A DNA stretch of 64,000 nucleotides from Lycium barbarum (lineage: Eukaryota; Streptophyta; Magnoliopsida; Solanales; Solanaceae). A program made the position numbers and the translations under genes. Shown piece after piece: positions 8,984 through 52,391 of this stretch (positions are counted from its first letter, which is position 1; every line of letters begins with the position of its first letter). The notes below the pieces were generated by a model. The model did not search any database and was not told where the DNA came from. It saw only the letters and a program-made list of their open reading frames with translations. Where the stretch lies: assembly GCF_019175385.1 (NCBI RefSeq), contig NC_083345.1, positions 119,291,657 through 119,355,656 on the forward strand, read 5' to 3'.

Positions 8984-9686
8984 GAGGCCAAAAATAGATC
9001 TAAAAACCTCTAAATTTCCTTAGCATTACATATAGAAGGATAATAGGAATACATCTGGTTTTGAAAGATAAACAGGTTTGCATAAAGTAACTTATGTGGA
9101 AAACACGAATTCAATCTGTAACCGATATGCAATTAAATAATTCTATTGATTAATATTTAATGAAACTCATCAAGTAGGGTATAATATGATTAATCCTTTA
9201 ATTAAAAAGATGATTAAGTAGATTATGTACAAGAATGAACCAAAAAATGCAAAATAAAGGTAGAAAATGCTAAAAAAAAAAGAAGGGAAAAAGGATAAAT
9301 ACTAATAGAGGCTATAGAGAGATGCTACATAGGATTGACTATGCCTAGCTTTATATTATATATAGATTATATATAGACTAGTGAATAAGTCCACGCTTCG
9401 CGCGGTTGATTTTTTTTTTTAATTAAATAATCTATGTATTAGAGTAGCTTCTATAATCAAAATCTTAGTTTCAATAATACTTCTTATTACATAATGTGGT
9501 GACTAACACCTTTTGTTTTCTTGACGACATAAACTAATCAGTGTTGACACCCAATTTTGTCCCGCCTCTCTTCCAAAATACCTATTTATGCTCCTAACAT
9601 TTTGTGGAAAATTAAAAAAATATATATATATTGTATTTACTATGATTATTAGCCTTTTATCAAAATCGGGGCTTCATTATTATATT

Positions 9687-9722
9687 TCAGTTACTTATTA
9701 TTATTATTATTATTATTATTAA

Positions 9723-9762
<40 letters not shown>

Positions 9763-9780
9763 ATTATTATTATTATTATT
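9687..9780. repeat. (ATT)n microsatellite in 5' LTR
   Basis: About 95 bp of TTA/ATT repeats with two AATATT interruptions. The matching tract in the 3' LTR (about 17487-17563) is shorter, making this one of the few differences between the two LTR copies. Confidence 0.95.
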
Positions 9781-10355
9781 CACAATTTTTATCATTTCAG
9801 TATTTTACCAGCTTACGCACACGCATCGCATTTATCTTTGCATAATTAAATAATAGTATTTTATTTTACTGTGAATTTTAAAAAAAAAATATTATTGCAC
9901 GACTATTATAACATCATATAATTTTATTACCCGGGTTCTAATAATTACACATTTTGGTATTATGTGATATTATGTCATTCTCAGTACATCGTTAATCAAA
10001 ATGAGTCTCTTATTTAAATATTGGAAGACAAACTGTTCCTTACACGCAGTCCGTATTTCGACTTACCGAATCCCAAATTAAAGTCTGATTAAATCCTAAT
10101 ATCTTTTGGACTAGCCCATATCTTTTATCTCAATTTTTAAACCCAGTCTATGTTTTTAATTTTAGCCCATTCTCAATACTCAGTCCAAAAAATGGACCCA
10201 GTCCAAAAAATACCGGGTCCGACCCGCATCAGCTCCAACATAAGGGAAACCCCTAGGGTTTCCCTTTATTCTTTTACTCCTTACGCCGCCTCCCCCCCTT
10301 TTTTCTCTCCTTTCTCTTCTCGCCTTCATCATCTCATCACCCCCACCACCGCCGT

Positions 10356-10500
10356 TTGCCCCGCTCCCTTCCCCACACCGCTACCCCACTCCCACGCTCC
10401 TCGTCCCCACCTCGCCGACGACCCCCACACCGCTACCCCACTCCCACGCTCCTCGTCCCCACCTCGCCGACGACCCCCACACCGCTACCCCACCACGCTC
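10356..10500. repeat. C-rich tandem repeat, about 60 bp unit, in LTR U3
   Basis: CACACCGCTACCCCACTCCC and the following CACGCTCCTCGTCCCCACC, CTCGCCGACGACCCC recur at about 60-bp spacing (two full copies and a partial). The same array stands in the 3' LTR at about 18157-18280. It lies roughly 100-200 bp upstream of the TATA-like box. Proline-rich frames through it are artefacts of the C-rich repeat. Confidence 0.85.
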
Positions 10501-10572
10501 CTCTTCCTTTTTCCCCCGCTCCTCTCCCCCTGTTTTTTTCTTCAACACAAAAGAACCCCCCCCCAAATCCCC

Positions 10573-10579
10573 ATAAATA
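10573..10579 (+). promoter_or_regulatory. TATA-like box of the Tat LTR
   Basis: ATAAATA in the context CCCCATAAATAGGAGG, with its twin in the 3' LTR at 18356-18362. It follows a C/T-rich promoter-like stretch. Transcription would start about 30 bp downstream (near 10605), placing the splice donor about 290 nt into the RNA. This is inferred from motif and spacing only. Confidence 0.55.
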
Positions 10580-10895
10580 GGAGGAAGAGGCTTTGGAAGA
10601 GGGAGAACGAAAACCCCCAAAGAATCTGAAATTTCATTTTTTCTTTCTGGTCACGAAAAACCCCAAAATTACCTCAACAAAAAAAAATAGTTTATGAAGC
10701 TCCTAAATCATTCTTTTAGCAATATTATTTGATATCGAGTCGAAATCCACACCCTTTTTGTTTTTTTTTTTTTGCCCTTGGCATCCGTTTGGATTCGATG
10801 GTATACAAATCCGGGATTCGCAGTGTTTCGAAGTAGATTCGAAGTGTTCGAGGTAGATATCGAAACCCCGCTCCCACTTCGCTGCACCCGAAGAA

Positions 10896-10897
10896 GG
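10896..10897 (+). other. Exon-exon-like junction between LTR and gag leader
   Basis: GAAGAAG (exon, from the LTR) joins GTTGACTTGTGC (leader). In the intact 3' LTR the same GAAGAAG is followed by GTAATT, a good plant donor. The acceptor lies in sequence this copy has lost. An intact relative should show AG followed by GTTGACTTGTGC downstream of its primer binding site. Confidence 0.7.
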
Positions 10898-11014
10898 TTG
10901 ACTTGTGCTAAAGGGGAACTGGCGGAGCATCCATATTTCACACGGTCTAGAGCCAAGAAATCAGACTCTGACTCATCACTAATCATCTGGTTAACTAAAA
11001 AGACTCGTTCTAAA

Positions 11015-12295
11015 ATGGATCAAAGTTTGATCAATGCAACCACTTCATCTGAGCCATCTCTTAGTTTACCGATCACGAGTGATCCCACATCTTCTAATCA
11101 ACCAGAAACACATTTGGAGATCATTGCTCGTTTGGAGCGACGAGTTGCTGAATTAAGTCACATGGTACTTCACAACCGGTCATTTTCTCAAACGCCACCA
11201 CATATGACTCCATCTCATGGGGTTCGTCAGACTTTGCCTATGCCACCTCCATTCCCAAATTTGGACGAATTTAACCAAGCAAATTATTTTACCACCTCCC
11301 AGCCGGTTCGTTCCGAACCCCTCACTCAAAATGCTCCCCTTTTATTTACAGCCACCTCTTCAAAAGCTCAGTTCATACCGCCGACACATGATGTTACCAA
11401 TACGCATCAAGTTCCACCCATATATACTTACACCACAGCTCCACCCATGACACAAATCCAGGGACAATGTCGCACAGATGTTGATCATTATGTCGAAGTT
11501 GAAAATGAGGCACGGTCAATTAATGATGAAATGATAAATAGAAAGCTCAAAAGTTTGGAGGATGCCATGAGAAGTTTGCGTGGACTTGGTAGTAACCAAA
11601 GCGTGAGATATGAAGAATTATGTGCATTTCCTGAGGTAGAATTGCCACCAGGTTACAAGATTCCAAAATTTGAGAAGTTTGATGGGTCGGGGAACCCTTT
11701 CTTCCATTTGAAAGTCTATTGTGAAAAGTTGATTGGTGTGGGGAAGAATGAAGGGATAAGAGTCAAACTATTCAATCAGAGTTTGAGTGGAAAAGCCTTG
11801 GAGTGGTATTCTAAGCAAGATACAACCAAATGGCGTACTTGGGATGATTTGGCAAATGCTTTTGTGGATCACTACAAGTTTCATGTTGAGATCGCTCCTG
11901 ACAGAATCTCAATTACAAAGTTGAAGAAGAAGTTCACCGAATCATTTCGAGAATATGCTATACGGTGGAGGGAAGAAGCATCTAGAGTACACCCACCCAT
12001 GGAGGAGACAGAAATGGTTACTTTCTTCATTCAAGCGCTAGAGCCGGAATACTATGAACGTTTGGTGACAATGGGTGGAAAAACTTTTGCAGAGGTGATC
12101 AAAGCCGGGGACATGATTGAAGATGGCATTAAGACAGGGAGAATAACAAGTCTTGCGGCTTTACAGTCTACTAGTAGGGCCATACAAACAGGTACTCTCG
12201 GGAACGGAAAGAAAAAAAGAGAAAGAAGCAGCATCGGTAATGGCTTTGGGAAACACATCATACCACCATCAACAACCCCCGCGATACCAGCCTAA
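11015..12295 (+). CDS. gag: Gag polyprotein, capsid part (Tat lineage)
   Basis: The first ATG of the open frame (11015) begins MDQSLINATTSSEPSLS. The frame is open upstream into the LTR exon but has no earlier in-frame ATG in the part I checked, so this start is preferred. A proline- and serine-rich N-terminus is followed by the retrotransposon gag domain: about residues 220-365 counting from this Met, with FDGSGNPFFHLKVYCEKL, GKALEWYSKQDTTKWRTWDD, FREYAIRWREEASRV and ETEMVTFFIQALEPEYY. The product would form the virus-like particle that packages element RNA. The frame ends at 12295, but homology moves to the +1 frame near the A7 run at about 12214 (GNGKKK, then EKEAASVMALGN). That suggests a one-base insertion or, less likely, a programmed shift. 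The capsid region itself is uninterrupted. Confidence 0.85.
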   Translation: MDQSLINATTSSEPSLSLPITSDPTSSNQPETHLEIIARLERRVAELSHMVLHNRSFSQTPPHMTPSHGVRQTLPMPPPFPNLDEFNQANYFTTSQPVRSEPLTQNAPLLFTATSSKAQFIPPTHDVTNTHQVPPIYTYTTAPPMTQIQGQCRTDVDHYVEVENEARSINDEMINRKLKSLEDAMRSLRGLGSNQSVRYEELCAFPEVELPPGYKIPKFEKFDGSGNPFFHLKVYCEKLIGVGKNEGIRVKLFNQSLSGKALEWYSKQDTTKWRTWDDLANAFVDHYKFHVEIAPDRISITKLKKKFTESFREYAIRWREEASRVHPPMEETEMVTFFIQALEPEYYERLVTMGGKTFAEVIKAGDMIEDGIKTGRITSLAALQSTSRAIQTGTLGNGKKKRERSSIGNGFGKHIIPPSTTPAIPA

Positions 12296-14321
12296 CGTTC
12301 ACCACTCACAGTATTTCCAATATTCTCCACATCCCTACGACCAAGCTTTGTCATCTTACCAACCTCAATCACCACAAATATCCTACCCTGTTTACAACAC
12401 ACAACCAGCATATCGAGCTCCACGACCACCAACATATCCAACTCCACCATCACAAACTCATCATCCAAACAATGCATCCGCACCTCGCCCAAATAAACCG
12501 TTTCGCCATTTCACACCATTAGGAGAGCCACTGAGCGTTGTTTTTGAAAGACTGCAAGCTTCAGGCTTAGTATATCCTGTGGAAGGTAGAATTCCAGATC
12601 CATTACCCAGAAGCTTTGATCCCACTAAAACATGTGCATATCATTCGGGGGTAAAAGGCCATTCCACTGATCGTTGTTACGCATTGAAGCATAAGGTTGA
12701 GGATCTTATTGAAGCAAAACAGATCACGGTCAAACCGCCAACACCAAATGTGGTTAACAATCCGCTCCCGACCCATGATGGGGCCACGATAAATATGATT
12801 GGAATAGATGAAGATGTTGACGACCCAGCCGAATTTATAGTGCCTGTGGATCGTGTGGAGGATCATGATTTTGTAGCCGTTGCTTCTCCGGCTGTAGTGA
12901 TAAGGGGTTGTGTGCCTGTCGAGATATTAGGAGCTTCATCAATACCTGTGGAAGTAGTTCGAGCACCAAATCAGTTGCCAGTGCTCGATACAAAAGCCGT
13001 AGCATGGAATTATCAACAAACTGTGATGGAGTGTCGAGGAAAGGACACGATCACTGACAAGGTTAAGACGTCAGGAATGACAAGGTCTGGGAGGTGCTAT
13101 TCTCCAGAAGAACTAGTTAGATTGGGGCAACTTAAGGAAACCAACGTACCTCCCAAAAGGGTCGTGACTGAATTCGAAGCAGAAGAATTTCTGAGGAAAA
13201 TTAAAGCTAGTGAGTACTCAGTTGTGGATCAGTTGAAAAAGACCAATGCTCAAATTCCTATTCTCTCTTTGCTTTTGAGTTCAGATATGCACAGAAATGC
13301 ACTGTTGAGGATTTTGAATGAAGCATATGTTCCAAGTGAAACAACTAGTGAGGCGCTAGCTGGGATGATCGAGCGCGTGCTTGACAGTCATCGAATCAGT
13401 TTCGATAATGAAGAACTGCCGCCAGAAGGATGCATGCATAACAAAGCGCTCTATATAACTGTCAAGTGTCGTAACATGTTTGTGGCTAAAGTGTTGATTG
13501 ATGGGGGTTCTGGACTTAACATCTGCCCATTAACAAGTCTGAAGAAGATCGGATATAATGTTAGTGAGCTCAAGACAAGTGATGTGAATATTCGAGCATT
13601 TGATGGTGCTCAAAGGCGCCCTATTGGAGAAATAGAGTTGAAAGTGTTGATTGGCCCTGTTGAGTTCATTATGGATTTTCAAGTACTTGATATCTCCACG
13701 ACATACAACATGCTGTTAGGAAGACCGTGGATACATCTGGCTGGGGCTGTACCATCTACTTTGCACCAAACTGTCAAATTCGAGTGGGATCAGCAACAAA
13801 TATGTATACATGGAGAAGGGGATACGTCTTTCTATCGAGAGCAATCCATCCCATTCATTGAGGCAGAAGGAGGGTTCGACGGAGCAGCTTACCACGCTTG
13901 GGAGGTTGTGAATGTCACTAAAGTGGGTGAAGTCTGTCAAACTCAAGAGTTTAAAAGGTCATGCGCCACGATTATGGTTGCAAAAGAAATGCTGAGAAAT
14001 GGGTACCAACCTGGATTTGGGCTAGGGAAGACATTAAATGGGCGGGTTGAGCCAGTCGTTCTCCCTACGCAACAGTTTACATTCGGTTTGGGATATGAGC
14101 CAACTGAGGAAGAAGTGAAGAAAGCACGAAAGAATAAAAAGAAAGAGGTTCCATTGCCAAAACCTATTCCTACCATTGATCAAACTTTCTCAAAACCTTC
14201 AGATCTAATTATTGAGGTTGCCTATGATGATATCGTGGAGGGAATCAAGAACCTGTTCGTGGAAGATGAAGATGATCATGCTGTGATAATCAAAGACTTT
14301 GCTGAAATATTGACTTTATAG
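12210..14321 (+). CDS. pro: Gag nucleocapsid, aspartic protease and G-patch region
   Basis: This continues gag in the +1 frame. After a Pro/Gln/Tyr-rich linker comes a zinc-knuckle-like CAYHSGVKGHSTDRC at about 12633-12677, then a spacer, then the retropepsin-like region with the active-site segment VLIDGGSGLNICPL at about 13491-13532 and NMLLGRPWIH at about 13708. Tat elements usually have a DxGS(A/S) active site, so Gly after the catalytic Asp-Gly-Gly-Ser fits the family only loosely. A G-patch (RNGYQPGFGLGKTLNG, about 13996-14043) follows, a domain known from Tat/Ogre proteases. The frame stops after KDFAEILTL. No reverse transcriptase follows in any frame, whereas complete Ogre-like elements continue into RT after an intron. 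Confidence 0.82.
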   Translation, partial: RKKEKEAASVMALGNTSYHHQQPPRYQPNVHHSQYFQYSPHPYDQALSSYQPQSPQISYPVYNTQPAYRAPRPPTYPTPPSQTHHPNNASAPRPNKPFRHFTPLGEPLSVVFERLQASGLVYPVEGRIPDPLPRSFDPTKTCAYHSGVKGHSTDRCYALKHKVEDLIEAKQITVKPPTPNVVNNPLPTHDGATINMIGIDEDVDDPAEFIVPVDRVEDHDFVAVASPAVVIRGCVPVEILGASSIPVEVVRAPNQLPVLDTKAVAWNYQQTVMECRGKDTITDKVKTSGMTRSGRCYSPEELVRLGQLKETNVPPKRVVTEFEAEEFLRKIKASEYSVVDQLKKTNAQIPILSLLLSSDMHRNALLRILNEAYVPSETTSEALAGMIERVLDSHRISFDNEELPPEGCMHNKALYITVKCRNMFVAKVLIDGGSGLNICPLTSLKKIGYNVSELKTSDVNIRAFDGAQRRPIGEIELKVLIGPVEFIMDFQVLDISTTYNMLLGRPWIHLAGAVPSTLHQTVKFEWDQQQICIHGEGDTSFYREQSIPFIEAEGGFDGAAYHAWEVVNVTKVGEVCQTQEFKRSCATIMVAKEMLRNGYQPGFGLGKTLNGRVEPVVLPTQQFTFGLGYEPTEEEVKKARKNKKKEVPLPKPIPTIDQTFSKPSDLIIEVAYDDIVEGIKNLFVEDEDDHAVIIKDFAEILTL

Positions 14322-14522
14322 GCTGTTGAGCCAGGACTTGAGTTGCAGAATTGAACTTCTATCTTAGCCCCAGCCCGCCGGGAGTTTCAGTAATTTAAGT
14401 TTAAATTTCCTTTGTAATAGGCCGGAGGCATCAACTAGAACGTTTAGTTCCTTTTGTCATCCTGCCTCTATGTTTTGTTACGGCCTTTTTGAATTCAGAG
14501 TTTGTCATTTTTGTTTTGTAAC

Positions 14523-14781
14523 GAACTACGTTTGGCCTGACTTCCTGTTGGATACGTAGGCAGCCCACATCGGGTTCGGCCACTCTTTTCAAATCATTTC
14601 AGTATCTTTGTTTGTGGTTGGAACTACGTTTGGCCTGACTTCCTGTTGGATACGTAGGCAACCCATATCGGGTTCGGCCCCCCCTTTATTAAAAAAAAAT
14701 TCAAAAGTCTTTATTTTTATCACGAACTACGTCTGGCCTGATTCCTTTGGGATACGTAGGCAACCCGAGGCGGGTTCGGCC
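14523..14781 (+). repeat. Three ~100-bp repeats with TACGTAGGCA core, 3' UTR of Tat element
   Basis: GAACTACGTTTGGCCTGA, then GGATACGTAGGCA and a GGGTTCGGCC end, begins at 14523, 14621 and 14723 (spacing 98 and 102 bp). A diverged fourth copy sits at about 17160-17225 just before the polypurine region (GAACTACACTCGACCTGATT and ATATGTAGGCAACTC). The spaced conservation suggests an RNA or DNA element kept by the family, but no function is known to me. Confidence 0.85.
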
Positions 14782-14898
14782 CTTCTATTTTAAAGTTTTT
14801 CAGTTTGTCCAAACATTTTAATTCCTATAACATACATAAGGATTTTTTTATATAAGATTTTGGTCTTCCCACCGTTTAAATTCATGTGTCTTAGTATC

Positions 14899-15125
14899 TT
14901 GAAACTGGGACAAATTTTTGAAATCGGCCAAATCACTTTCAAAAATTTTCATTACAACTTTCTCACTTTTCGATTTGTTTAGAATCAAGTGCCTCCAGGA
15001 CTGGAAACTGGGACAAAATCTTGAAGTCGGTCAAATCACTTTCAAAAGCTTTCATTATAAGTTCTTACTTTTCAATTGTCCAGAATCAAGCGTCTCCAGG
15101 ACTTAAACTGGGACAAAATTTTAGA
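14899..15125 (+). repeat. ~103-bp direct repeat, two copies plus a partial
   Basis: AAACTGGGACAAATTTTTGAA, GGCCAAATCACTTTCAAAA and AATCAAGTGCCTCCAGGACT recur at about 14901 and 15006, with the start repeated again at about 15105. They are part of the non-coding 3' region of the Tat element. Confidence 0.8.
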
Positions 15126-15939
15126 AATAGCATAAAAGTTGTCTTAAATATTTAACCGTTTTTTAATAAAAGTCCATCTATATTTCTAATAAATTCAAAA
15201 AAATCAAGTCTTCACAATCATTTTTATCTATCTATTAGATATTGCCCCTCAGAGTCATACAAATCTCGTTACTCATGTTTTGCAAAATATGTTTTATAAC
15301 TGAAACTCCCCGGCAAAGCAAGATATGTGGTGAGACATCGAAGAACGTGGACGCGACCGAGACAAAAATCAAGTCAAGGGCCAAGTTCCCCAACATGCAC
15401 AAGTCAACCAATTTTCTTTTAAACTCACAATTTTTCTTTGATGAGACAGGTTCAACTAACATGAACGTGGTGCATATTTTAAATTATAGACATGATCCAA
15501 GAGTTAGCTTCCTTTAAAATGCAAATATTGTTCAACTTGGATGCAAAGGTAGCTTATGATGAACGGTGGACGTCGTACCACTCGTTATGAAATCCCGATC
15601 GCAGCAGTGGACATGAATTTATCTTCTCAACAAAGGGTTGTGAGTATAATTCTTTCAAACCCAGCTATTTACATATCCTTATCACTAACAGTTGCTTTAG
15701 CTCGTGGCATTTCTCGATGGATCAAATACACATAATCGTGGACTTAACTTTCTTCAAAAGGGACTGACTGTGGTCACCCGTTATTGGTTGTGGGTATAAG
15801 CGTGGATACCTTTCTACAATACCATTTTAAGTGGACGTGGATTTACATTTACATTGTGGATGTGAGCAAGGAGGCAGAAGTAGATTTATATTACAAAAGA
15901 AAATGCACATATAATTATAGAAAGTGGATACAGATTCAT
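15126..15939 (+). other. Non-coding part of Tat 3' region
   Basis: No recognisable domain. A 91-codon frame at 15242-15517 and its minus-strand shadow show no motif. The stretch grades into the tandem arrays; GTGGATTTA-type words already appear at about 15835 as diverged repeat units. Confidence 0.5.
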
Positions 15940-16215
15940 TTTTCGAAAGTAGAAGTGGATTTATTTGCACCGTATAATACGGATGTGGAAGTAGAAGTGG
16001 ATTTATTTCAAACAACCGTATAATACGGACGTGGAACTAGAAGTGGATTTATTCTTTACACCGTATAATACGGACGTGAAAGTAGAAGTGGATTTATTCT
16101 TTACACCGTATAATACGGACGTGAAAGTAGAAGTGGATTTATTTCAAACAACCGTATAATACGGACGTGGAAGTAGAAGTGGATTTATTCTTTACACCGT
16201 ATAATACGGATGTGA
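15940..16215 (+). repeat. 45-46-bp tandem array with hairpin core, six copies
   Basis: CCGTATAATACGG begins at about 15970, 16016, 16061, 16106, 16152 and 16198. Each unit continues ACGTGAAAGTAGAAGTGG then ATTTATT with either TTACA or CAAACA. The core CCGTA-TAA-TACGG can fold on itself (5-bp stem, 3-nt loop). Diverged units extend upstream to about 15835. Confidence 0.9.
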
Positions 16216-16304
16216 AAATGAATGTTGGATTTATTTTTGTACCATGAAATGCGGACGTGGATTTATATTTTGCACCGTGGAAGTGAACATGGATTTACAT
16301 TTCA

Positions 16305-16875
16305 GTTCAAGCACCCACCTCCGAATGCGGGTATCTTATATTTCAGTTCAGGCGCCCACCTCCGAATGCGGGTATCTTATATTTCAGTTCAGGCGCCCAC
16401 CTCCGAATGCGGGTATTTTATATATCAGTTCAGGCACCCACCTCCGAATGCGGGTATTTTATATTTCAGTTCAGGCGCCCACCTCCGAATGCGGGTATCC
16501 TATATTTCAGTTCAGGCGCCTACCTCCGAATGCGGGTATTTTATATATCAGTTCAGGCACCCACCTCCGAATGCGGGTATTTTATATATCAGTTCAGGCA
16601 CCCACCTCCGAATGCGGGTATTTTATATATCAGTTCAGGCACCCACCTCCGAATGCGGGTATTTTATATATCAGTTCAGGCACCCACCTCCGAATGCGGG
16701 TATTTTATATTTCAGTTCAGGCGCCCACCTCCGAATGCGGGTATCCTATATTTCAGTTCAGGCGCCCACCTCCGAATGCGGGTATTTTATATATCAGTTC
16801 AGGCACCCACCTCCGAATGCGGGTATTTTATATTTCAGTTCAGGCACCCACCTCCGAATGTGGATTCAACTTTCA
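16305..16875 (+). repeat. 41-bp tandem array, 14 copies, open in all three forward frames
   Basis: CCGAATGCGGGTAT recurs every 41 bp from 16321 to 16854 (14 starts; the last has CCGAATGTGG). Units alternate mainly between GGCGCCC and GGCACCC, and between CTTATATTT and TTTATATAT, in an ordered way that suggests higher-order duplication of blocks. Because 41 is not a multiple of 3 and the unit has no stop in any forward frame, three overlapping repetitive frames of 215-263 codons result. I treat these as by-products, not proteins. Confidence 0.95.
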
Positions 16876-17311
16876 AAACAGGGGTTGCAAGTTTGGCATC
16901 ACACATCAACTCGTGGAACTATTTCTTCGGCAGCGAACTGGGGCAATTTGTCGGGAAGGATAATCAGACTTTCCGACATGGGTCAAAGATCTACCTCGAA
17001 CACTCGTCTCTAATTACAAGTATTCTCTTGCATTCTATCAATTCAATTTTTTAAGAATTCTCAAGTTTCTATCATAATACCCAGTGTTATCATAATTCAA
17101 CACTGGGACAATATTTTGCAAGCTTCGCGCCAATAGGGGTTCAGGTGTCGTAATTGTTCCAGAACTACACTCGACCTGATTCTCGTGCAGCCCGAGATAT
17201 GTAGGCAACTCAGAGACCGGAGTTCGGTCATATACTTTTCAAGTTTCCTTTAGCCGGGACAAAATAGGCTATTGAGTCAACGTCTTTGCCCGACAACTCT
17301 TTTCATCATTA

Positions 17312-17331
17312 CCGGGCAAAGAGGGACAAGT
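17312..17331 (+). promoter_or_regulatory. Polypurine tract of the Tat element
   Basis: GGGCAAAGAGGGACAAGT lies immediately before the TG of the 3' LTR, the expected place for the plus-strand primer in reverse transcription. Confidence 0.7.
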
Positions 17332-17512
17332 TGTTGACACCCAATTTTGTCCCGCCTCTCTTCCAAAATACCTATTTATGCTCCTAACATTTTGTGGAAA
17401 ATTAAAAAAATATATATATATTGTATTTACTATGATTATTAGCCTTTTATCAAAATCGGGGCTTCATTATTATATTTCAGTTACTTATTATTATTATTAT
17501 TATTATTATTAA

Positions 17513-17546
<34 letters not shown>

Positions 17547-20500
17547 ATTATTATTATTATTATTCACAATTTTTATCATTTCAGTATTTTACCAGCTTAC
17601 GCACACGCATCGCATTTATCTTTGCATAATTAAATAATAGTATTTTATTTTACTGTGAATTTTAAAAAAAAAATATTATTGCACGACTATTATAACATCA
17701 TATAATTTTATTACCCGGGTTCTAATAATTACACATTTTGGTATTATGTGATATTATGTCATTCTCAGTACATCGTTAATCAAAATGAGTCTCTTATTTA
17801 AATATTGGAAGACAAACTGTTCCTTACACGCAGTCCGTATTTCGACTTACCGAATCCCAAATTAAAGTCTGATTAAATCCTAATATCTTTTGGACTAGCC
17901 CATATCTTTTATCTCAATTTTTAAACCCAGTCTATGTTTTTAATTTTAGCCCATTCTCAATACTCAGTCCAAAAAATGGACCCAGTCCAAAAAATACCGG
18001 GTCCGACCCGCATCAGCTCCAACATAAGGGAAACCCCTAGGGTTTCCCTTTATTCTTTTACTCCTTACGCCGCCTCCCCCCCTTTTTTCTCTCCTTTCTC
18101 TTCTCGCCTTCATCATCTCATCACCCCCACCACCGCCGTTTGCCCCGCTCCCTTCCCCACACCGCTACCCCACTCCCACGCTCCTCGTCCCCACCTCGCC
18201 GACGACCCCCACACCGCTACCCCACTCCCACGCTCCTCGTCCCCACCTCGCCGACGACCCCCACACCGCTACCCCACCACGCTCCTCTTCCTTTTTCCCC
18301 CGCTCCTCTCCCCCTGTTTTTTTCTTCAACACAAAAGAACCCCCCCCAAATCCCCATAAATAGGAGGAAGAGGCTTTGGAAGAGGGAGATCGAAAACCCC
18401 CAAAGAATCTGAAATTTCATTTTTTCTTTCTGGTCACGAAAAACCCCAAAATTACCTCAACAAAAAAAAATAGTTTATGAAGCTCCTAAATCATTCTTTT
18501 AGCAATATTATTTGATATCGAGTCGAAATCCACACCCTTTTTGTTTTTTTTTTTTGCCCTTGGCATCCGTTTGGATTCGATGGTATACAAATCCGGGATT
18601 CGCAGTGTTTCGAAGTAGATTCGAAGTGTTCGAGGTAGATATCGAAACCCCGCTCCCACTTCGCTGCACCCGAAGAAGGTAATTTCCCCTCTTCCTTGAA
18701 ATTCATTTTTTTATCTGTTTGGTGTTTACTTGAACTATTTTCTGCAAAATTGGTTAATCTCGGCTTAATCCTACTCAGTGTAACTTCATGTTCGTTTAGT
18801 GTGTTCATCATGTTGTTCAATTGGTAGCTGATTTAGATTAGGCATCAAACCTGTTTATATGTTTAATTAGATACCCATGTTTAATGTCAATCTATATCCA
18901 TATGCTTAGTTCGGCGATTAGCATACTTACTGTTTAAAATTCTGAGTCAAATAGGTTGATGTGTTTTATGTGCACCACGCATTAACTGATAATGACAATT
19001 TTGAAACCATGTTACTAACTTACATATGATTAACATATGTCCTATTTTGAAGAACATGGTAAGCTCGTATTCAGTTAACAATGCTTTCACAAATTTCGGA
19101 TATGACTAAATGAGCTGTTTTGTATGTTAAGGATGCTGTTATTCCAATCAAGTATGCATATGTCGAATGAAGTCCTGTCTAAATCATGATTTCTTATTTG
19201 GAAAGTCCAAATTTGCTTGTAGAAGGTCCGGCAGAGTCGAACTATGATCGTAATGGTCTAAAATGTGATTTGCGTATAAATGATAGGCTCTTCTTTTAAG
19301 CCATTTATTTGCCTTGAGCATTGAAACAGAATGGAAATTATGGTGGATAAATAAATGTATACATCTCTTAAGTGTAAATATCTTGTTCAACAGATTTCAA
19401 CAGAACCAGTAGTTCCAGTACTTTTTTTTGACATCAGAAAATTCATTTTGAACCAAGTAGAACTTCTAGGAATCATTTCATCTATGGATTATGGTTAGCC
19501 CTGTTTGTATTTCCCACATCATGTTGTATAAGCTAGAAATGACATGTCAAGATTCTCTCTTTTCCAATCAATTGCTGCTGGTAGGCTTTAAAACAGTAGT
19601 AAAAATGACTCTAAATTCTAAGTCTTTAAATTTCGGACTGATCTGTTGCTGCTTGATAAATTCATTGTTATGGCTTATTGTTTTGGTTGCTGAGTCTTAA
19701 AAGGGAGAGCAAAGTTTAACCAGAGATGGGATCTTGAATCTTAAAATCACTAAAAATGAATCATCTGATCACTGAGCGCTTAAAGTCTCTACCCTTCAAA
19801 AGCAAGACTGATTTCCTGTCCTTTGCCATATCTTTTGGTTTATTATAGCATGTGCAAGTTTTGAAGTTACTTATACATTTCTTGGTATCATTTTGAACCT
19901 AGCTAAAACTTGATGTTGTTCTTATAGCATGCCTGAATAATTGAACCTGTCTGCTGGTGTTTTTACCAAAACATGATTAGTTGTTCTTATAATGATTAGT
20001 CTTTCAGACTAGGAGTTATCTGAGATTGGTATAAAGCCTATTTGATCATTTGTTGACTTAGACTGATAGAGTGTGATATGATTAAGAGAAATCCTAGTCT
20101 AATTTGGAGTAAGCTTAAAATGCCATCCGTGATAACGATATGTAGTGTCATTACGTATGCTTAAGAGTTAGTTTAAAGTGGGATCTAAGTATGCTGAATT
20201 TGTCTTAATGTGGCTGTTCCTATATGTGGCTGCCTGTTACTATTGTTTACTACAACATACCACCCACTGGTTGAATTACTACTGCTATATATCGCTTTGA
20301 AGGCAAAAGAAACTTATCGTTTGAAACCAAACCTATATCTGGGGCCATGTCTTTGGCTAGACATTGTTTGACTATTGTTGGTTGTTGCTCAATTGTTATG
20401 GGCTGCTGCTCAGTTATTCTTATGGCTGTTGAAACTCACTTTGTGGCACTTCCCTGTTGCACTTTATGTTACTTTGCTGCTGTTCATTGCTGCTACCTAA

Positions 20501-23419
20501 GGCTGCTACTTGGTTCTGTTTGCTGGTGTTATTTCCTGCTAAAAAAATGAACAGATCACTATACTAAAAAAGAATAAAAAAATGAACACATCCTGTATTT
20601 GGTCAAAGATCATTGATTCAAACATGACACTATGCTTGGGTCGATGAAGAGTTGTCTAACTTGATGCCTCGTTTTTAAAAGAGCGGATTTCTATACTCGA
20701 TATTATTGAAAGGAACAAATATTCTACTGAAAAGAACAATACTATATTTGATCCACACTACAAGTTTTAGTGAGCAGCTGTGTCTATTTACTGCATTGTC
20801 TTGTATATGAATGTTTCGATACAGTTGATGCAAATCGCTGTTGCAATTTTAAGTTTGCAACTCTGCACTTGGTTTGGCAGATCCTATGTCGTAGTATAAT
20901 AAATCCTGTATTTTATTCCGGGTTCTATTAGGGGAATTTTATTTCCTGGTTCTGTTACTGTCCATTAAAGTCTAGTTTGTTTGGGTTTAGTTGTTTCCAT
21001 GATAAGTAACTTAAGTCACTAATTCAATAATCTTCCTTCCTCCTTTCATTTTTTTGAGTTCTGTTTTCATTTAGTTCACTATTTGTTTGTTTGTATTTGC
21101 TATATCTAGTAATGAATAGTTAAGTCCTTGTTTATGATTTTCTCTTTAGCTTCTGGTTGGATTAAGTGTTAAATTTCCTTGGTGACCAAGTTGGATAAGT
21201 GTAAGCTTTCGTAATTAAAAGTTACTGTACTTGTTTTTGTCTTATTGAAGTTTGTGTTCTTCAAGGTGCCGATTGAAATATGAATCATTAAAGGTTTCAT
21301 TTCCTTTACACCTGTTAGAGTTATCACCTTGCTGGCTTAAAGTTGATTAATATGAGGTCTGTTAGGTTGGAGAATATGTTTAGATCTGTAGAAAATCACC
21401 TCGTTTCCCTTTGTTCTGCTTCTTTTGGGTATGTGAGCCGTTGTCCCTTTAGCTCAAAATTCGTCCCCTGTACATTTTGGTAAATGAGGAGAGCGTGAAT
21501 TCTTACTTTGAGTAGAGTGTATCAGTTCTGGCTTTAGCAACTGGACCTTTTAGTATTCATGAGCATGAGTTTTTCCTAAAGTTGCTATACCTTGATTAAG
21601 CTTTAACCAATTTCCTAGAGCCTCAGCATGTTTCACCCTCTAGCTGGCTGTTTGGATATTTAAACACTTGTGTATGGTTCTGTGTAATAACATATTCAAA
21701 ACCTTTGAGTTACCTTTATTTTGGTCGATACCTGCTGTTCAGTTATACACCTTTCCCTTTTGGGATATTTGGGATACTTGCTTTGCCAAAGTATTTATAT
21801 GCTGCCAGTACATTTTGTAAAGTGTTGTCACGGCTAAGTCATTATTGTCCCAAGTGTCCAAGCTAGTTGTTCTCTATCTCGTTTCTTTCTGTTGGGTTTC
21901 CAGTCCCTTGTTTAGATTAGGACAAATATACATATTATATACATACTCCACTGGTCTGCTTTATTTACATTATATTCGTTTAGCCTTATTTATCGATTAT
22001 GTACTAATCCTTTTCCTTTCGTTTTCTGCATGACCATCGCATACGAGTCCGAGGGACTCGTTCTTCTCCTGCATTCGGTGTTGGGCTAAAAACCCAACGC
22101 AATCTCCTCTCGGGTCAATCTATGTCCGCAGCAGCAATATAAAGAAAAAAATTCACTGGGCCTAAGCCCAATCACGTGAACAGTTCCAGCAGCTGGGCTT
22201 TAAAATGGCCGGATCCATTTCATCTTTGTCTTTCTCTCTTCCTTATTTTATTGTTATGTATTTTTATTTGCTTGAATGGCTAACCTTATCCTATTTTATT
22301 AACTCAGATGAATCCTAACGAATTAGTAGATTTAGTTTTAGTAATGGGTAGTTTAGTTTAAGGAAGGCTAACAATTAATTTCATAAGTTATTCTCTTGCT
22401 TTTTCATGTTTTATTTTGGTTTGGAATAATTGATTTGCAAAAATAGCATGATTATATATTCTAAGTAAAGGGAATCATATTTTATTCTTATTATCATATA
22501 CATTTTTAAAACGTCACTAATACGCAAGTATAAACTCAAGTATATTTTATAAATAACTCTTCAAGTTTGAATCAATCGCGTCTGTTTTTAGCTGAGCATA
22601 ATTAAATAAATCAGTAATAAAGAGGAAGAAAACTTACTTTCTTTGCATTCTATTTAAGTCTAGATTTTCTACACCGCCATATTCACATAACATAATCTTG
22701 TTTCAAAGTTACTAAAACGTCACTTATATGCAAATTGTTATATTTCTGCAAGTCTTATTTTCAAGAATATTATTACATTTTCATTCAAGGGTTTAGCATG
22801 TCCAAGTTTTTATTTTAAATAGCCTTTAAAATCTTCTTTTATACAATACATCATATTTTCTACAAGTATTATTTCAAACGACATCATTATTACTTTCATA
22901 TAAAGCCTTAGCAACATTTTAAGCTTTATTTAAATTGCGTCTAAAATCCTCTTTTATGCAAACTATCTTTTATAAGTTTTATTTCTAAATAGCATTTCAT
23001 TTAAAGTCTTAGCAATATTTATCAGTCCTATTTTTAAAAAATGGCATTTTTAGTTTTCTTTTATATTATATTTTCCGTAAATCTTATTTCCACTAATACT
23101 ATTTTCCATTTTTAAATTTAAACATTATATTTTACTCTCAATTAATTAACCTAAGTTGGCGGATAACCGTAATTTAACGGATTCTAAAGGATGCCTAACC
23201 CCTTCCCTTTAGGATAATATAGAGCCCTTACCCAGAATCATCCTGGTTAAGCAGACTATTAACGGAGGTTTAGTTTTAACTTTGCCTTAGTTAACATCTA
23301 GGTGTCCTAATTCACCGTCAAATTAATTAGGTGGCGACTCCTTAAAACGAAACAAAATAGGAATCACCAATACGTCATACCTCCTAATTTTAACTTCCGG
23401 GTTAAAATGGGGTGTGACA
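17332..23419 (+). repeat. Full 3' LTR of the Tat element, 6088 bp
   Basis: It starts TGTTGACACCCAATTTTGTC and ends GGGGTGTGACA, followed by the TSD ATCAG. The first 1.35 kb equals the 5' LTR. A TATA-like ATAAATA sits at 18356 and a donor-like AAG|GTAATT at 18678/18679. The rest (18679-23419) is T-rich and non-coding, like a plant 5'-UTR intron. The last 260 bp (for example AGGATGCCTAACCCCTTCCC and AGGTGGCGACTCCTTAAAAC) resemble in order and wording the end of the second Tat-type LTR at 47560-47795. Short frames at 19184-22033 have no motif. Confidence 0.9.
18679..23419 (+). other. Donor-side part of the inferred LTR leader intron
   Basis: It begins GTAATTTCCCCTCTTCC and is T-rich throughout, with no open frame of note. 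It is exactly the part missing from the 5' LTR. The intron would run on through U5, the primer binding site and the leader to an acceptor not preserved here. Removing the primer binding site means the spliced RNA cannot prime reverse transcription in the usual way. Confidence 0.6.
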
Positions 23420-24529
23420 ATCAGTAATCAAATAAGCAGTCTAATTAAAAAAAAAAATCTATAAGCTCTTGGTCTAGAGATAGAACATGTAAAAGTACAA
23501 TTTGCTAACAATTGAAAATTACATACAGTAAAGTTACCTTAATTCTTATAAGGAAGATCGAAGTTATATCTAATCTTTTAACTCTCCCACTTTCATAGTC
23601 AAACAAATGACAAAGCAAATCTGCCTAACTTTTGCCCAAAATTAGAATCAACATTACCAGTTTCAAATTAAAAAAAAAAAAGGTATTGACAAAAAGAGAA
23701 GATTATGCAGATAAAAATTCAAAATGTTCATACATAGTAGGTAAGCATGTGCATTAATCCCTAGCAAACTGAAGATAATTATATTTGTAATCCAATTGAA
23801 TTAAGTATAAAATTGTCTAGAAATTTAAATATAAAATTTTAAGTAAACAAAAATGAGTAAGTGAATAATGAAAAATATAACCCTATGACTATGAAATGCT
23901 AAAAGATTTTTGTAGGTGGATAATGGCAAAATATAACCCTAAAAAAATAGGGAGACTATATCACAAAGAAAAAGCTATTATTATATAAACTATATTAATT
24001 TAAACTTCTAAAAAATGGTTAGTTTAGCCAGCTATATTAACATGATGTGGAAATTTAAGTAATTAAAATGTGAAAGTTGTTAAGTCACTGATAATATAAA
24101 ATGGACTTCAACTTTCATGTTTTTTTGTCACCTTATCTTTTTATTTTTTCTAAATTCCAAAGATAATAATCACATAATAACTAAAGATAAAATTCTTGAA
24201 ATTGATCAACATGATTTTTTTTAGATAATACTTATAATAAAATAATACATCGGTCATATTCCTTTTTAATCTTACTGAATAATTTTTTGAATTGACCAGA
24301 AATTAAAATAGTCTTCATAAACTTCATACTTTCACTGCCTAAAAAAATATTTGCTCATGAGAAAATCCACCAAAAGAAAACAACGAAGATATAAAGATAA
24401 AAAGCACCTCAAGCCGTCAAGCTCTTCGTTTTCAGCTCAAAAATAGAAATGAAACCCAATTTAATTTCTTGTCCCTTCGTTGCCACTGAAAGATGTTTTG
24501 CGGTAGAATTTCTGACCTTCATCTCCTCC

Positions 24530-25992: not shown

Positions 25993-26399
25993 TATGGATA
26001 TTTGATGATATGATTGTACTAGAACCCAGTCCTAGTGTTAATTAATTATTAACTTACGAGTTTACCACGCCCAAAAACAAAAATGTTCTTCTCGCAATCA
26101 ATTTCACATGCTGATTGGAAGACTTCACACTCTCTTCTGACATCTTAATGTAATGTTGAATAATCTCAAATCTAATCTTCCGTCTCATTTTTCCATTCTA
26201 TAAAGGAAGAAACAATTGAAATACTTCTTTTCAAATTGACGTATGCTTTGAAAAGAAAAAAATCCCTTTATTGCGCATCAATCATCATTTTAATTTTTAG
26301 CCAAGAATCCAGATTTTTTAGATTCCAAAACAAGTTCCGAGTTACACATAATTGCATATTTCAATTTCAAAATATCCACAATATACAATTATTATACGA
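25993..26399. other. Flank between Helitron D and the copia element
   Basis: AT-rich DNA in which I see no gene or repeat border. It ends in TACGA, the left flank of the copia insertion. Confidence 0.5.
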
Positions 26400-26904
26400 T
26401 GTTGTAAATTAACAATAGTGATGGTAGAAATTTTATGTGTATTGCTTTGATCATCAATGATCATATTTATACAAGTATTTTGTACAAGAAATTAAATCTA
26501 AATACATAAATATAAAAATACTCAGCTGTACACCTGTATTGATCCTACTCATTCTATGCAAAAATATCCTATCTGTGTAACTGAATTTATTCCTTTCTAT
26601 GTTGAGCATGTGCAAGTCACATGCTCTCTTCACAGCTGTCGACTTGTGTCTATCGGACGATCCAGATTGTATCTATCATGGAATTTGATGGATGGCTTGA
26701 TCGATGCCGCCTTTCTTATTGAATTAAGTCTTTTATCTGTGGAAAACATGGAAGATATCGAAGTACTTCCACTTTCCTTTCTTTTGTCTGAGAAACTCTA
26801 AAATCCAAATTCCTCTTCTTCAATTCTTGCTTCTTCCTTGAGCTGATAGAAGCAGCCATTGTTGATGAAGAAGAAGCTATGACAGGCTTCTCATATATTC
26901 CAAC
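26400..26904 (-). repeat. 3' LTR of the copia element
   Basis: Minus strand begins TGTTGGAATATATGAG and ends TTACAACA. It matches the right LTR with scattered substitutions. An 81-codon frame at 26556-26801 is a chance frame in LTR sequence and recurs in the other LTR. Confidence 0.9.
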
Positions 26905-26913
26905 ATTCCCCCT
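26905..26913 (-). promoter_or_regulatory. Polypurine tract of the copia element
   Basis: GAGGGGGAA on the minus strand directly precedes the TGTTGG start of the 3' LTR, the normal plus-strand priming site. Confidence 0.75.
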
Positions 26914-30200: not shown

Positions 30201-31788
30201 TGCTCCCCTCCCTTCAGAGCACATCTTTTGGTATACACTTTTGTTCGCTATGTTGTATTTATTCGTTCATGGGTACGGCGGGGCCCTGTTCCGCCATATG
30301 ATTCGTTTGGTCTGTTTAGAGGTCTGTAGACTTATTTGTGGGTGTGTGTGCCTACTTCTGTACAGTTGTGTCCATATGATCTTCTTCGTCATGGCAGTCT
30401 TGTCGGCATGCATTTTGTATATGTTTTTGGGTCGTTGTGCCATTTGATAGCCTTGTCGGCTCGCACATGTATATGTTGTGTTTGGGCGATCCCATTCGCC
30501 GCGGCGGCCGGTCCGCATATGTTTACACGTTGCATTGTTAGCCCTGTGTGGCCTTTGTTGGTATTTGCTGTGTACAGGGTTATTTTAGATAGTCCGAAAA
30601 ACAAAGGAAACTCTACCGAAATTTTTCTGGAAATTGTCTAAATTTGAAATATAGCCTTGATGGCTTCTGTTATATACTTGAATGCGTTTGATAAAATTTT
30701 GAGATAGCATTTGATAGATGTGTTTGGGTGCCCAGATTGGGCACTAGTCACGACCTACGGGGTTGGGTCGTGACACCTAGAAAGCAAGTAAAATGATCAA
30801 TGGCCACAAGCATGGATACAAGAAACTCTCAAGTAACGATCCAATGTATTTTATGATTTTACAACTAAGAGCAGGTTTGTGTTGATAGATAATGATTTCT
30901 AAAATTTCATTGAAAGTCTTCCAACCAAATCAATTAATTTCACTCTAAGCTTTTCCAAGCCTTAGAGTGTGATATCAAGCACAATCAATTTAACCTCAAA
31001 TAATTATCCTCTTCCGAGCTCAAGTTATTAGATGGGTTTAATGACCCATATTCTTGCTATTATCTCTTTTCCTAACCTCTACTTTCTTTTCCAAGCAAAT
31101 TATGGGTATTTAGGCACAAATAATGTTGTACACCATTAAATGACATTAAAGCTTGAAGAGTTAATAGAGAAACAATAAACCCACTTCATTAGAAATAACA
31201 ATCATTCAATACATAAGCATAACAAGAGGTTTCATCCAACTTTGCAAATGAATATTTTCATAAACAAGATGAAAGTTATGGAATAAAATTCTACACACTT
31301 AGATATACAATACAAGGCAAGGAATTTAAGAATTGAATTAAAGGTTTAAGAAATGTTCAACCAAATCTTCAAATCTTCAACCCCAAAGTGTGGTGTAGGA
31401 ACCTAGTCTCCAAAACTTGTATGAAAATGGCCAAAGATGAGTTTTACAAACCCTAGCATTCTATTTATAGAAGTGCCAAAACGGGAACAAAATCTGGACA
31501 AAAATACCCTGCGTGCACAACATGTTACTCGCATCTTGTGTCGCATGTGCAACATGCCAGTCGCATGTTGTGCCAAACCGTAGCATGTTGTGCAAATATC
31601 TCTGTCAGCACATGCTGCCAGAAAGTGCTCCTTGTTCTATTTTTGCTCCGTTTTTCTCCGTTATGCTCTCCGGGCATCTTATCCTACAAAACAACATAAA
31701 TACACAAAAAGTAACAACAAAAGTGCTTGAAGAGTTACAAAAGCTTAAGAAATTAGCATCGAATATCCCGTAATTTCACGGCACATCA
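27265..31788 (-). repeat. 3' LTR of the Athila-like element, interrupted
   Basis: Pieces 27265-27479 and 30781-31788 join to match the right LTR almost throughout. The sequence resumes after insertion with the duplicated CCTAG. A minus-strand TATA box (TATAAATAG) lies at about 31461-31469. The repeat-rich GCATGTTGTGC region just upstream of it is about 45-55 bp shorter than in the other LTR. Confidence 0.85.
27480..30775 (+). mobile_element. Ty3/gypsy solo LTR, 3.3 kb
   Basis: It runs from TGTTACGTCCCATATTTTTA to GGGTTGGGTCGTGACA, with TSD CCTAG at 27475-27479 and 30776-30780. The uninterrupted site is visible in the partner LTR at about 35555 (AACCTAGAAAGCAAG), which proves the insertion. 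Features typical of chromovirus LTRs of this plant group include TACTCAGTACATATTTCGTA (about 30085) and CCGCAGGTACAGACGCACAG. No internal coding remains. The short frames between 28507 and 30641 are chance frames. Confidence 0.9.
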
Positions 31789-35343: not shown

Positions 35344-36621
35344 TGATAACGTCCAAATCCACTCCTCAAAGAGAAAGCATACACGGTCGTATGCAATATA
35401 ATTTACCCAACTATGAGTCGGGGTCGATCCCATAGGGAACAATATACTAGGCGATTAAGAAAGTAAGGAACTTTCACTTACCAAGCTAAGCCAAACGATA
35501 GATAATATTTTGGTTTTTGAGAAAATTATAACTAATGCGGAAATATAAACTAACCTAGAAAGCAAGTAAAATGATCAATGGCCACAAGCATGGATACAAG
35601 AAACTCTCAAGTAACGATCCAATGTATTTTATGATTTTACAACTAAGAGCAGGTTTGTGTTGATAGATAATGATTTCTAAAATCTCATTGAAAGTCTTCC
35701 AACCAAATCAATTAATTTCACTCTAAGCTTTTCCAAGCCTTAGAGTGTGATATCAAGCACAATCAATTTAACCTCAAGTAACTATCCTCTTCCGAGCTCA
35801 AGTTATTAGATGGGTTTAATGACCCATATTCTTGCTATTAACTCTTTTCCTAACCTCTACTTTCTTTTCCAAGCAAAGTATGGGTATTTAGGCACAAATA
35901 ATGTTGTACACCATTAAATGACATTAAAGCTTGAAGAGTTAATAGAGAAACAATAAACCCACTTCATTAGAAATAACAATCATTCAATACATAAGCATAA
36001 CAAGAGGTTTCATCCAACTTTGCAAATGAATATTTTCATGAACAAGATGAAAGTTATGGAATAAAATTCTACACACTTAGATATACAATACAAGGCAAGA
36101 AATTTAAGAATTGAATTAAAGGTTTAAGAAATGCTCAACCAAATCTTCAAATCTTCAACCCCAAAGTGTGGTGTAGGAACCTAGTCTCCAAAACTTGTAT
36201 GAAAATGGCCAAAGATGAGTTTTACAAACCCTAGCATTCTATTTATAGAAGTGCCAAAACGGGAACAAAATCTGGACAAAAATACCCTGCGTGCACTACA
36301 TGCTACTCGCATCTTGTGTCGCATGTGCAACATGCCAGTCGCATGTTGTGCCAAACCGTAGCTTGTTGTGCAAATATCTCTGTCAGCACATGCTGCAGCA
36401 AGTGCTGCTCGCATGCACGACATGCTGCTAGCATGTGCTGCCAGAAAGTGCTCCTTGTTCTATTTTTGCTCTATTTTGCTCTGTTTTTCTCCGTTATGCT
36501 CTCCGGGCATCTTATCCTACAAAACAACATAAATACATAAAAAGTAACAACAAAAGTGCTTGAAGAGTTACAAAAGCTTAAGAAATTAGCATCGAATATC
36601 CCGTAATTTCACGGCACATCA
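35344..36621 (-). repeat. 5' LTR of the Athila-like element
   Basis: 1278 bp. It shows the intact site of the 27480-30775 insertion. A minus-strand TATA box (TATAAATAG) lies at about 36241-36249. Upstream of it on the minus strand is a dense set of GCATGTTGTGC / AGCATGTGCTGC repeats (36296-36445). That block includes about 45 bp absent from the other LTR. Confidence 0.88.
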
Positions 36622-36626
36622 ATTAC

Positions 36627-52379: not shown

Positions 52380-52391
52380 GCTCTGATACCA
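52380..52391 (-). promoter_or_regulatory. Met-tRNA primer binding site of the copia element
   Basis: The minus strand reads TGGTATCAGAGC, complementary to the 3' end of initiator methionine tRNA. It directly abuts the right LTR. Confidence 0.95.

What the first reader, a model, noticed from the sequence alone, without database searches (positions are those of the whole stretch)
9542..23419. An integrated Tat retroelement whose 5' LTR looks spliced: a 1.36-kb 5' LTR against a 6.09-kb 3' LTR
Seen: the same 5-bp TSD (ATCAG) bounds the whole unit; 9542-10896 matches 17332-18678 almost perfectly; the 5' copy then jumps to the gag leader exactly where the 3' LTR reads AAG|GTAATT, a good plant splice donor; no primer binding site is left. 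Inference: the copy came from an RNA in which an LTR leader intron (R/U5, primer site and leader) was spliced out, and it was still reverse transcribed and integrated with U3 at both ends. Normal plus-strand transfer needs the primer site, so transfer must have used the roughly 290 bases of R shared by both ends, or a template switch with an unspliced RNA. I know of no described plant element with this route. A DNA deletion ending at the donor by chance is the main alternative.
Basis: partly seen in the sequence, partly recalled or inferred. Interest (0 to 1): 0.88.

Follow-up and report, generated by a model that had tools for sequence, protein, structure and literature searches.

The report
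Retrotransposon inserted from spliced RNA
A goji-plant jumping gene appears to have been copied back into the genome from an RNA whose splicing had removed the sequence normally needed to start copying, and two other insertions in the same genome look like the same accident repaired in different ways.

Summary
The 13.9-kb insertion has a TSD (ATCAG), a 1,355-bp 5' LTR that stops where the 6,088-bp 3' LTR reads AAG|GTAATT, and no primer-binding site (PBS). Relatives in the same genome (probably Lycium barbarum) support the splicing reading. In all 25 unspliced copies whose leader I read, AG directly precedes GTTGAC after a T-rich tract. The donor motif occurs 2,439 times, 2,316 followed by GT. 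A 10-bp repeat that could mimic a deletion exists in some copies but not in the window's closest kin read (5 bp shared). The junction pattern occurs at three places. The second copy (TSD AAACC) has its own U3 but another subfamily's R exon, switched 27-40 nt into R. The third (TSD CGAAC) has at its left end an inverted R-U5 arm of another LTR, joined near the inferred transcription start to the spliced R exon. Simple deletion explains neither. A solo LTR lacks exactly an LTR-internal GT-AG intron from the same donor. Best reading: the LTR carries a leader intron that clears 80-odd upstream ATGs before gag and removes the PBS; such RNAs are occasionally reverse-transcribed and integrated, R-based template switching replacing PBS transfer. 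No RNA data were available.

The parts
9537..9541 (+). 5' copy of target-site duplication ATCAG
   Evidence: matches 23420-23424
9542..10605 (+). U3 of the 5' LTR
   Evidence: 99.3% match to 17332 onward; upper boundary inferred from TATA-like box + 34 nt
10572..10579 (+). TATA-like box CATAAATA
   Evidence: sequence; distance to the start inferred from L013, where TATAAAT lies 34 nt before the inferred R start
10606..10896 (+). exon 1: first ~290 nt of R, up to the splice donor; contains 2 short upstream ORFs
   Evidence: start inferred, not measured
10896..10897 (+). exon-exon junction GAAGAAG|GTTGAC (rest of LTR, PBS and leader missing)
10897..11014 (+). exon 2 leader before the gag ATG
   Evidence: first ATG after the junction is the gag ATG at 11015
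11015..12295 (+). gag ORF (Retrotrans_gag, PF03732)
12153..14321 (+). overlapping ORF in another frame, weak G-patch match near its C-terminus; protease-like motif recognised from recall only
14514..16860 (+). tandem repeats between the ORFs and the 3' LTR (periods 98, 103, 45/91/136, 32, 41); no pol
17317..17331 (+). purine-rich tract CAAAGAGGGACAAGT next to the 3' LTR (putative PPT)
   Evidence: role from general knowledge
17332..23419 (+). complete 3' LTR, 6,088 bp, TGTTGACACCC...GGGGTGTGACA
18679..18680 (+). splice donor GT in the 3' LTR (AAG|GTAATT)
   Evidence: GT follows the donor motif at 2316 of 2439 genome places
18679..21149 (+). LTR-internal intron (2,471 nt, GTAATT...TTTTCTCTTTAG), missing exactly from the solo LTR in L070
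22029..22096 (+). U5-side region to which the donor AG is joined in some other LTRs of the genome; splicing there is shown only weakly
23420..23424 (+). 3' copy of target-site duplication ATCAG

Best explanation
The family (a Ty3/gypsy-type element with gag and no pol) carries a splice donor inside R of its LTR, about 290-395 nt after the inferred transcription start. Pairing it with an acceptor about 1.02-1.03 kb beyond the LTR end removes a leader intron (rest of R/U5, PBS, leader; 3.9-4.7 kb in four copies measured) and gives a short-leader gag mRNA; unspliced RNA is the genome. The window insertion is a cDNA of the spliced, PBS-less mRNA. Inferred route: minus-strand strong-stop DNA primed on a co-packaged unspliced RNA transfers to the 3' R of the spliced RNA and is extended to its 5' end; the missing PBS transfer is replaced by pairing or template switching through R, which adds U3 (window, L002) or joins a strong-stop DNA head-on (L003); integrase then inserts the product with a 5-bp TSD. 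Shown from sequence: junctions, conserved sites, TSDs, chimeric and inverted 5' ends. Inferred: splicing itself, packaging and the order of the transfers.
For: (1) Donor motif CACTTCGCTGCACN7AG at 2,439 places (reversed-pattern control 0), GT next in 2,316 = 95%, although what follows GT differs among subfamilies. (2) AG|GTTGAC after a T-rich tract in 25 of 25 unspliced copies read, of the 37 such rows; sole AG within 62 nt in 14. (3) From inferred start to acceptor the unspliced leader has 83, 86 and 94 ATGs, exon 1 alone 0, 1 and 2, in the 3 copies that could be measured. (4) Junction at 3 genome places (27 fixed bases, up to 3 mismatches; more diverged copies would be missed), with three different R exons, so three different RNAs. 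(5) L002: TSD AAACC; 5' LTR follows its own 3' LTR through U3 and the first 27-40 nt of R, then a B-subfamily R exon. (6) L003: TSD CGAAC; left end is inverted U5-R of another LTR ending at GGGTTAGAATCG, 34 nt after TATAAAT in its 3' LTR, joined at CCC to R exon + gag; its donor shares only AGGT with the leader of its nearest gag relative L008. (7) Solo LTR L070 (TSD TCTGT) lacks exactly window 18679-21149, a GT-AG intron from the same donor, 2 bp shared.
Against: No RNA evidence: no reads, no mapped start or poly(A) site. For the window copy alone chimerism is not visible, and 5 bp (AAGGT) are shared at the junction. Only 3 such insertions were found in a large young family, so the event is rare. 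Donor and acceptor conservation is partly common descent. Of 20 other non-GT donor sites read, 10 join to LTR-internal sequence, but for 7 of these 10 the reference LTRs have no AG at the join (5 of 5 references that hold the site), so those are not clearly splice products; 9 are unresolved. Gag of window and L002 group together, though their R exons differ.
Confidence: 0.85

Rival explanations
1. Post-insertion DNA deletion: each copy once had a full 5' LTR, PBS and leader, and lost them by recombination between short repeats.
For: Four copies read (L004-L007) share CGAAGAAGGT (10 bp) with the window's donor. Copies with 5' damage are common in plant genomes (general knowledge). Several LTRs join the donor AG to internal sites without an AG in the reference LTRs, so non-splice losses starting at this place may exist.
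Against: Window kin with nearly identical gag (L040) or the same LTR type (L064) share only AAGGT; L003 shares AGGT with L008's leader. All three junctions fall on the same GT/AG pair. L002's U3/R chimera and L003's inverted arm inside matching TSDs need further events.
Confidence: 0.05
2. Reverse-transcriptase jump without splicing: during minus-strand synthesis on unspliced RNA the enzyme skipped from the leader to R.
For: Template switching looks frequent in this family (one R exon under unrelated U3s: L066, L068, L070), and products would look alike.
Against: Switches would not be expected to recur at one conserved GT/AG pair with 2-5 shared bases in four cases (window, L002, L003, L070), nor would the donor GT be kept at 95% of 2,439 motifs.
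Confidence: 0.05
3. One splicing event founded a lineage: a single spliced copy was amplified, and the three insertions are its descendants with LTRs exchanged later by recombination.
For: Gag of window and L002 are 98% alike and group together; LTR swapping seems common.
Against: The three R exons, which lie on the same RNA as gag, belong to different subfamilies; L003's gag is nearest the unspliced copy L008 (98.6%; 8 copies compared). A PBS-less copy cannot prime itself.
Confidence: 0.08
4. Retroposition of the spliced mRNA by a LINE, as for a processed pseudogene.
For: Would also capture a spliced RNA (general knowledge; no call supports it here).
Against: 5-bp TSDs, exact LTR termini, no poly(A) tail, U3 at the 5' end of window and L002.
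Confidence: 0.01
5. Assembly error that collapsed the 5' LTR.
For: Long repeats are hard to assemble; raw reads were not available (no call supports it).
Against: The junction is not a collapse of identical sequence; three different copies with matching TSDs.
Confidence: 0.02

Closest known systems
Foamy viruses (spumaretroviruses): major splice donor in R, upstream of the poly(A) signal (PMC3694450, passages including abstract text)
   Same: Donor lies in R of the LTR; donor needed for gag expression; splicing from such a donor takes out downstream LTR sequence and the PBS (last point inferred from geometry)
   Different: Animal retrovirus; here a plant retroelement with gag and no pol and a leader intron of about 4-5 kb. 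Whether U1 binding at this donor suppresses a 5' poly(A) site is unknown
HIV-1 spliced RNAs, packaged and reverse-transcribed (PMC1868081, passages)
   Same: Spliced viral RNA enters particles and is copied
   Different: HIV's donor is downstream of the PBS, so its spliced RNAs keep the PBS and the R regions; here the PBS is spliced out
BARE1 spliced gag RNA (PMC3735527, passages including abstract text); Ogre, CRR, Bagy2 and copia as cited there; EVADE in PMC12786077 (passages)
   Same: LTR elements that splice, several to separate gag expression from the genomic RNA
   Different: Introns of BARE1, EVADE, Ogre and CRR are described inside or between coding regions; for Bagy2 the passage does not say where the intron lies. 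No passage read describes an intron spanning LTR, PBS and leader
LTR1 lentiviral vectors (PMC5542766, passages)
   Same: Show that a strand transfer thought essential can be dispensed with
   Different: Engineered; removes the first transfer, not the PBS-based second one
HTLV/BLV donors in R and their defective proviruses (recalled, not tested)
   Same: R-located donor
   Different: No spliced-RNA provirus of this kind recalled

Membership tests
Ty3/gypsy LTR retrotransposon | Retrotrans_gag domain | tested here: met
   PF03732 E 7.3e-9, above cut-off; named homologs are nearly all Solanaceae proteins (one Hibiscus)
Ty3/gypsy LTR retrotransposon | TG...CA LTRs, 5-bp TSD, PBS, PPT | tested here: met
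   LTR ends and TSDs; PBS-like stretch in 11 of 11 unspliced copies looked at, absent in the window copy; PPT by eye
Tat lineage of Ty3/gypsy | RT/RH/INT phylogenetic placement | not testable with these tools
   No pol in the window nor room for it in the copies mapped piece by piece
Tat lineage of Ty3/gypsy | Tandem repeats between coding region and 3' LTR, very long LTRs (recalled as typical) | tested here: met
cDNA of spliced retroelement RNA | Exact GT...AG junction against unspliced relatives | tested here: met
cDNA of spliced retroelement RNA | Junction present in RNA | not testable with these tools
   no RNA data held
cDNA of spliced retroelement RNA | Integrase-type ends and TSD | tested here: met
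   ATCAG, AAACC, CGAAC
LINE-mediated processed copy | Poly(A) tail, variable TSD, no U3 at 5' end | tested here: not met
Ogre-type intron-bearing elements | Intron between coding regions | tested here: not met
   the intron here lies in LTR and leader; no pol ORF present

The most novel reading that the evidence does not exclude
Plant LTR retroelements can complete reverse transcription without a PBS on the template: R itself serves as the second-transfer site. This recurring side road makes insertions from gag mRNA, chimeric U3/R LTRs, and even an insertion with U5 at both ends. The same R-borne donor, used with LTR-internal acceptors, also strips introns from LTRs and so contributes to LTR evolution in the family.
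Probability: 0.48. Interest if true: 0.85.

Novelty: new variant of a known kind. Interest (0 to 1): 0.77.

Why it matters
Textbook reverse transcription needs the PBS for the second strand transfer. Three natural insertions here lack it and show three different outcomes, which makes fallback steps readable from genome sequence. It also gives a plant retroelement whose gag mRNA and genomic RNA would be separated by splicing inside the LTR, and a way in which LTRs can lose introns and swap U3 regions.

Tried and rejected
Simple deletion at the 10-bp CGAAGAAGGT repeat: looked likely, then disfavoured because the closest kin read lack that repeat and because of L002 and L003. Support from protein gene models: none of the 111 homologs aligned to the exon 1 part. 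Relatives in IMG/VR: none encoded a relative of gag. A first junction pattern was mis-spaced by one base and found 0; the corrected one found 3. The AG scan misread L004 on the wrong strand; its true context is. The ATG count left out L007 (no donor found) and could not be made for L008 (no TATA box found). I tried to read all LTR-internal losses as splicing; 7 of 10 mapped joins have no AG in the reference LTRs, so I claim it firmly only for L070 and tentatively for the CCCAACG class. A count of all acceptors in the genome and a search for AG before CATGACC did not complete. The paper on Ogre splicing is not held. The HIV MSD-minus paper (passages) was not relevant to spliced templates. On re-checking, the confidence in the best explanation went from 0.86 to 0.85, the deletion rival from 0.04 to 0.05 and the novel case from 0.5 to 0.48, because.

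Full report
OBSERVATION. The insertion at 9542-23419 is bounded by ATCAG. The first 1,355 bases equal the start of the 3' LTR with 1 substitution in 1,347 aligned bases and 3 gap runs in low-complexity sequence. At 10896|10897 the 5' copy goes from GAAGAAG into GTTGACTTGTGC, while the 3' LTR goes on as GAAGAAG|GTAATTTCC. Gag is present (PF03732) with an overlapping second ORF; tandem repeats fill much of 14.5-16.9 kb and there is no pol ORF. The sole substitution lies at 10607, within a few bases of the inferred start of transcription; this may be chance.

HOST. The window is C9:119291657-119355656 of a 1.67-Gb assembly. One search lists Lycium barbarum proteins on contigs of 126,384,085 and 149,041,705 bases, exactly the lengths of C9 and C4; two other L. 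barbarum contigs of that list (125,083,490 and 137,364,012) differ slightly from C10 and C6. So the host is probably Lycium barbarum (goji), perhaps in another assembly version.

UNSPLICED RELATIVES. A 201-base query across the junction gave 40 scored matches of 1,564 candidates; 3 include the LTR side, 37 begin only at query base 90-93. Of those 37 I read the leader end of 25: AG directly precedes GTTGAC in all 25, after a T-rich stretch; in 14 it is the only AG in 62 nt, in 11 there is another AG 3 nt upstream (with L004 corrected). A PBS-like stretch follows the LTR in 11 of 11 copies looked at. The donor motif stands at 2,439 places, 2,316 with GT (the three spliced copies are among the 2,316). 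In 3 copies the leader from inferred start to acceptor holds 83, 86 and 94 ATGs; exon 1 holds 0, 1 and 2, and the first ATG after the acceptor is that of gag, 118 nt on (L007 was left out and L008 could not be measured). So splicing would turn an untranslatable leader into a normal one.

THE DELETION RIVAL. L004-L007 share CGAAGAAGGT (10 bp) between donor-side LTR sequence and leader, so splicing and deletion at a repeat predict the same junction there. But L040, whose gag is 100% identical to the window over 951 bp (rounded), and a pair with the window's own LTR type at C7:91112117/91125528 (L064, L065), read AAAATAAAA(A)G|GTTGAC and share only AAGGT with the donor.

TWO MORE INSERTIONS WITH THE JUNCTION. 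A pattern of 27 fixed bases with up to 3 mismatches hits three places in the genome. L002 (C9:90338188, minus): TSD AAACC. Its 5' LTR follows its own 3' LTR at 98% over 933 bp, then changes to an R exon found at 95-98% in other LTRs ('B'; 40 scored of 158 candidates; L035, L036). The change lies inside the shared AAGAATCACAGTT, 27-40 nt after the inferred R start. L036 has an unrelated U3 but becomes similar at about the inferred R start. L003 (C10:111248541, plus): own 3' LTR reads CACACAAAAGAG|GTAAACC, 5' side CACACAAAAGAG|GTTGAC. Its left part is an inverted R-U5 arm of yet another LTR, starting with the LTR terminus TGTCACACC directly after CGAAC (L033:434-438) and matching CGAAC after the 3' LTR. 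The arm ends at GGGTTAGAATCG, whose counterpart in the 3' LTR is 34 nt after TATAAAT, and joins the sense R exon at a CCC shared with the C-run there. This is what is expected if strong-stop DNA of an unspliced RNA, ending at the RNA 5' end, primed synthesis on the minus strand of a spliced template. L003's R exon differs from its own 3' LTR at 8 of 310 aligned sites plus 3 gap runs.

INDEPENDENCE. The R exons of the three insertions are of three subfamilies. Gag of L003 is nearest L008 (98.6%), window and L002 are 98.0% alike (8 copies compared). So at least two, probably three, separate events.

THE SAME DONOR WITH LTR-INTERNAL SITES. A solo LTR at C7:129464211 (TSD TCTGT) is 99.9% identical to window 21150-23419 and 99.0% over the R exon, and lacks exactly 18679-21149, GTAATT...TTTTCTCTTTAG. 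81 of the 2,439 donor motifs have a base other than G after AG. I read 20 of the 81. One is a point-mutated donor (L085). Ten are joined to LTR sequence near window 22029-22096 (L073, L075, L076, L077, L080, L082, L083, L084, L086, L089; L076 by its first bases only). Of these ten, three join at CCCAACG, where 2 of 3 reference LTRs that hold the site read AG; the other seven join where 5 of 5 reference LTRs read no AG, so they are not clearly splice products (the base before L084's and L086's joins was judged from the alignments). Nine are unresolved. In 12 of 12 pairs of places 10-30 kb apart, taken as LTR pairs, both members carry the same altered site (one of the 12 is the point mutation). 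That fits normal reverse transcription with the PBS kept, or inheritance; the window type is changed in the 5' LTR alone.

LITERATURE (open PMC subset only). A 2025 review says plant LTR elements generally lack introns, with Ogre and EVADE as exceptions (PMC12786077, passages). BARE1, Bagy2, Ogre, CRR and copia are named as spliced elements in PMC3735527 (passages). Foamy viruses have the donor in R (PMC3694450, passages). HIV spliced RNAs are reverse-transcribed but keep the PBS (PMC1868081, passages). My searches (listings seen) showed no title or abstract opening describing an LTR/leader intron over the PBS or PBS-less spliced copies; subscription papers are not covered.

VERDICT. Shown: sequence anatomy. 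Inferred: splicing in vivo, packaging, and the order of strand transfers.

Noticed in passing
L066, L068, L070 and L035/L036: LTRs of this family combine the same R exon with unrelated U3 regions; the switch lies near the inferred R start, as expected from first-strand transfer between different RNAs.
   Followed up: partly
C1:1654144-1692123, C5:13845751-13870397: Donor motifs or gag copies recur at regular 12-13 kb steps, which suggests tandem arrays sharing LTRs.
   Followed up: no
L021/L022 (copy L004): A copy with most of gag and all of the second ORF missing between LTR and tandem repeats; an even smaller non-autonomous form.
   Followed up: no
L024/L025 (copy L007): Both LTRs are only about 2.49 kb, with CAACAG joined to GAACATCGCATACGAG: another LTR-internal loss with PBS kept.
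   Followed up: partly
L010:7203-8488; rc of L029 near 700-800: LTR sequence inserted in opposite orientation within the second ORF of L002; L002's 3' LTR also lacks its first ~80 bp.
   Followed up: no
P0048, P0075: Capsicum gene models with HMG-CoA synthase domains carry a stretch 73% identical to this gag: annotation fusion or insertion.
   Followed up: no
window 30775-31789 / 35553-36622 and 26394-26905 / 52386-52898: Other direct repeats of about 94% identity, perhaps LTRs of further elements.
   Followed up: no
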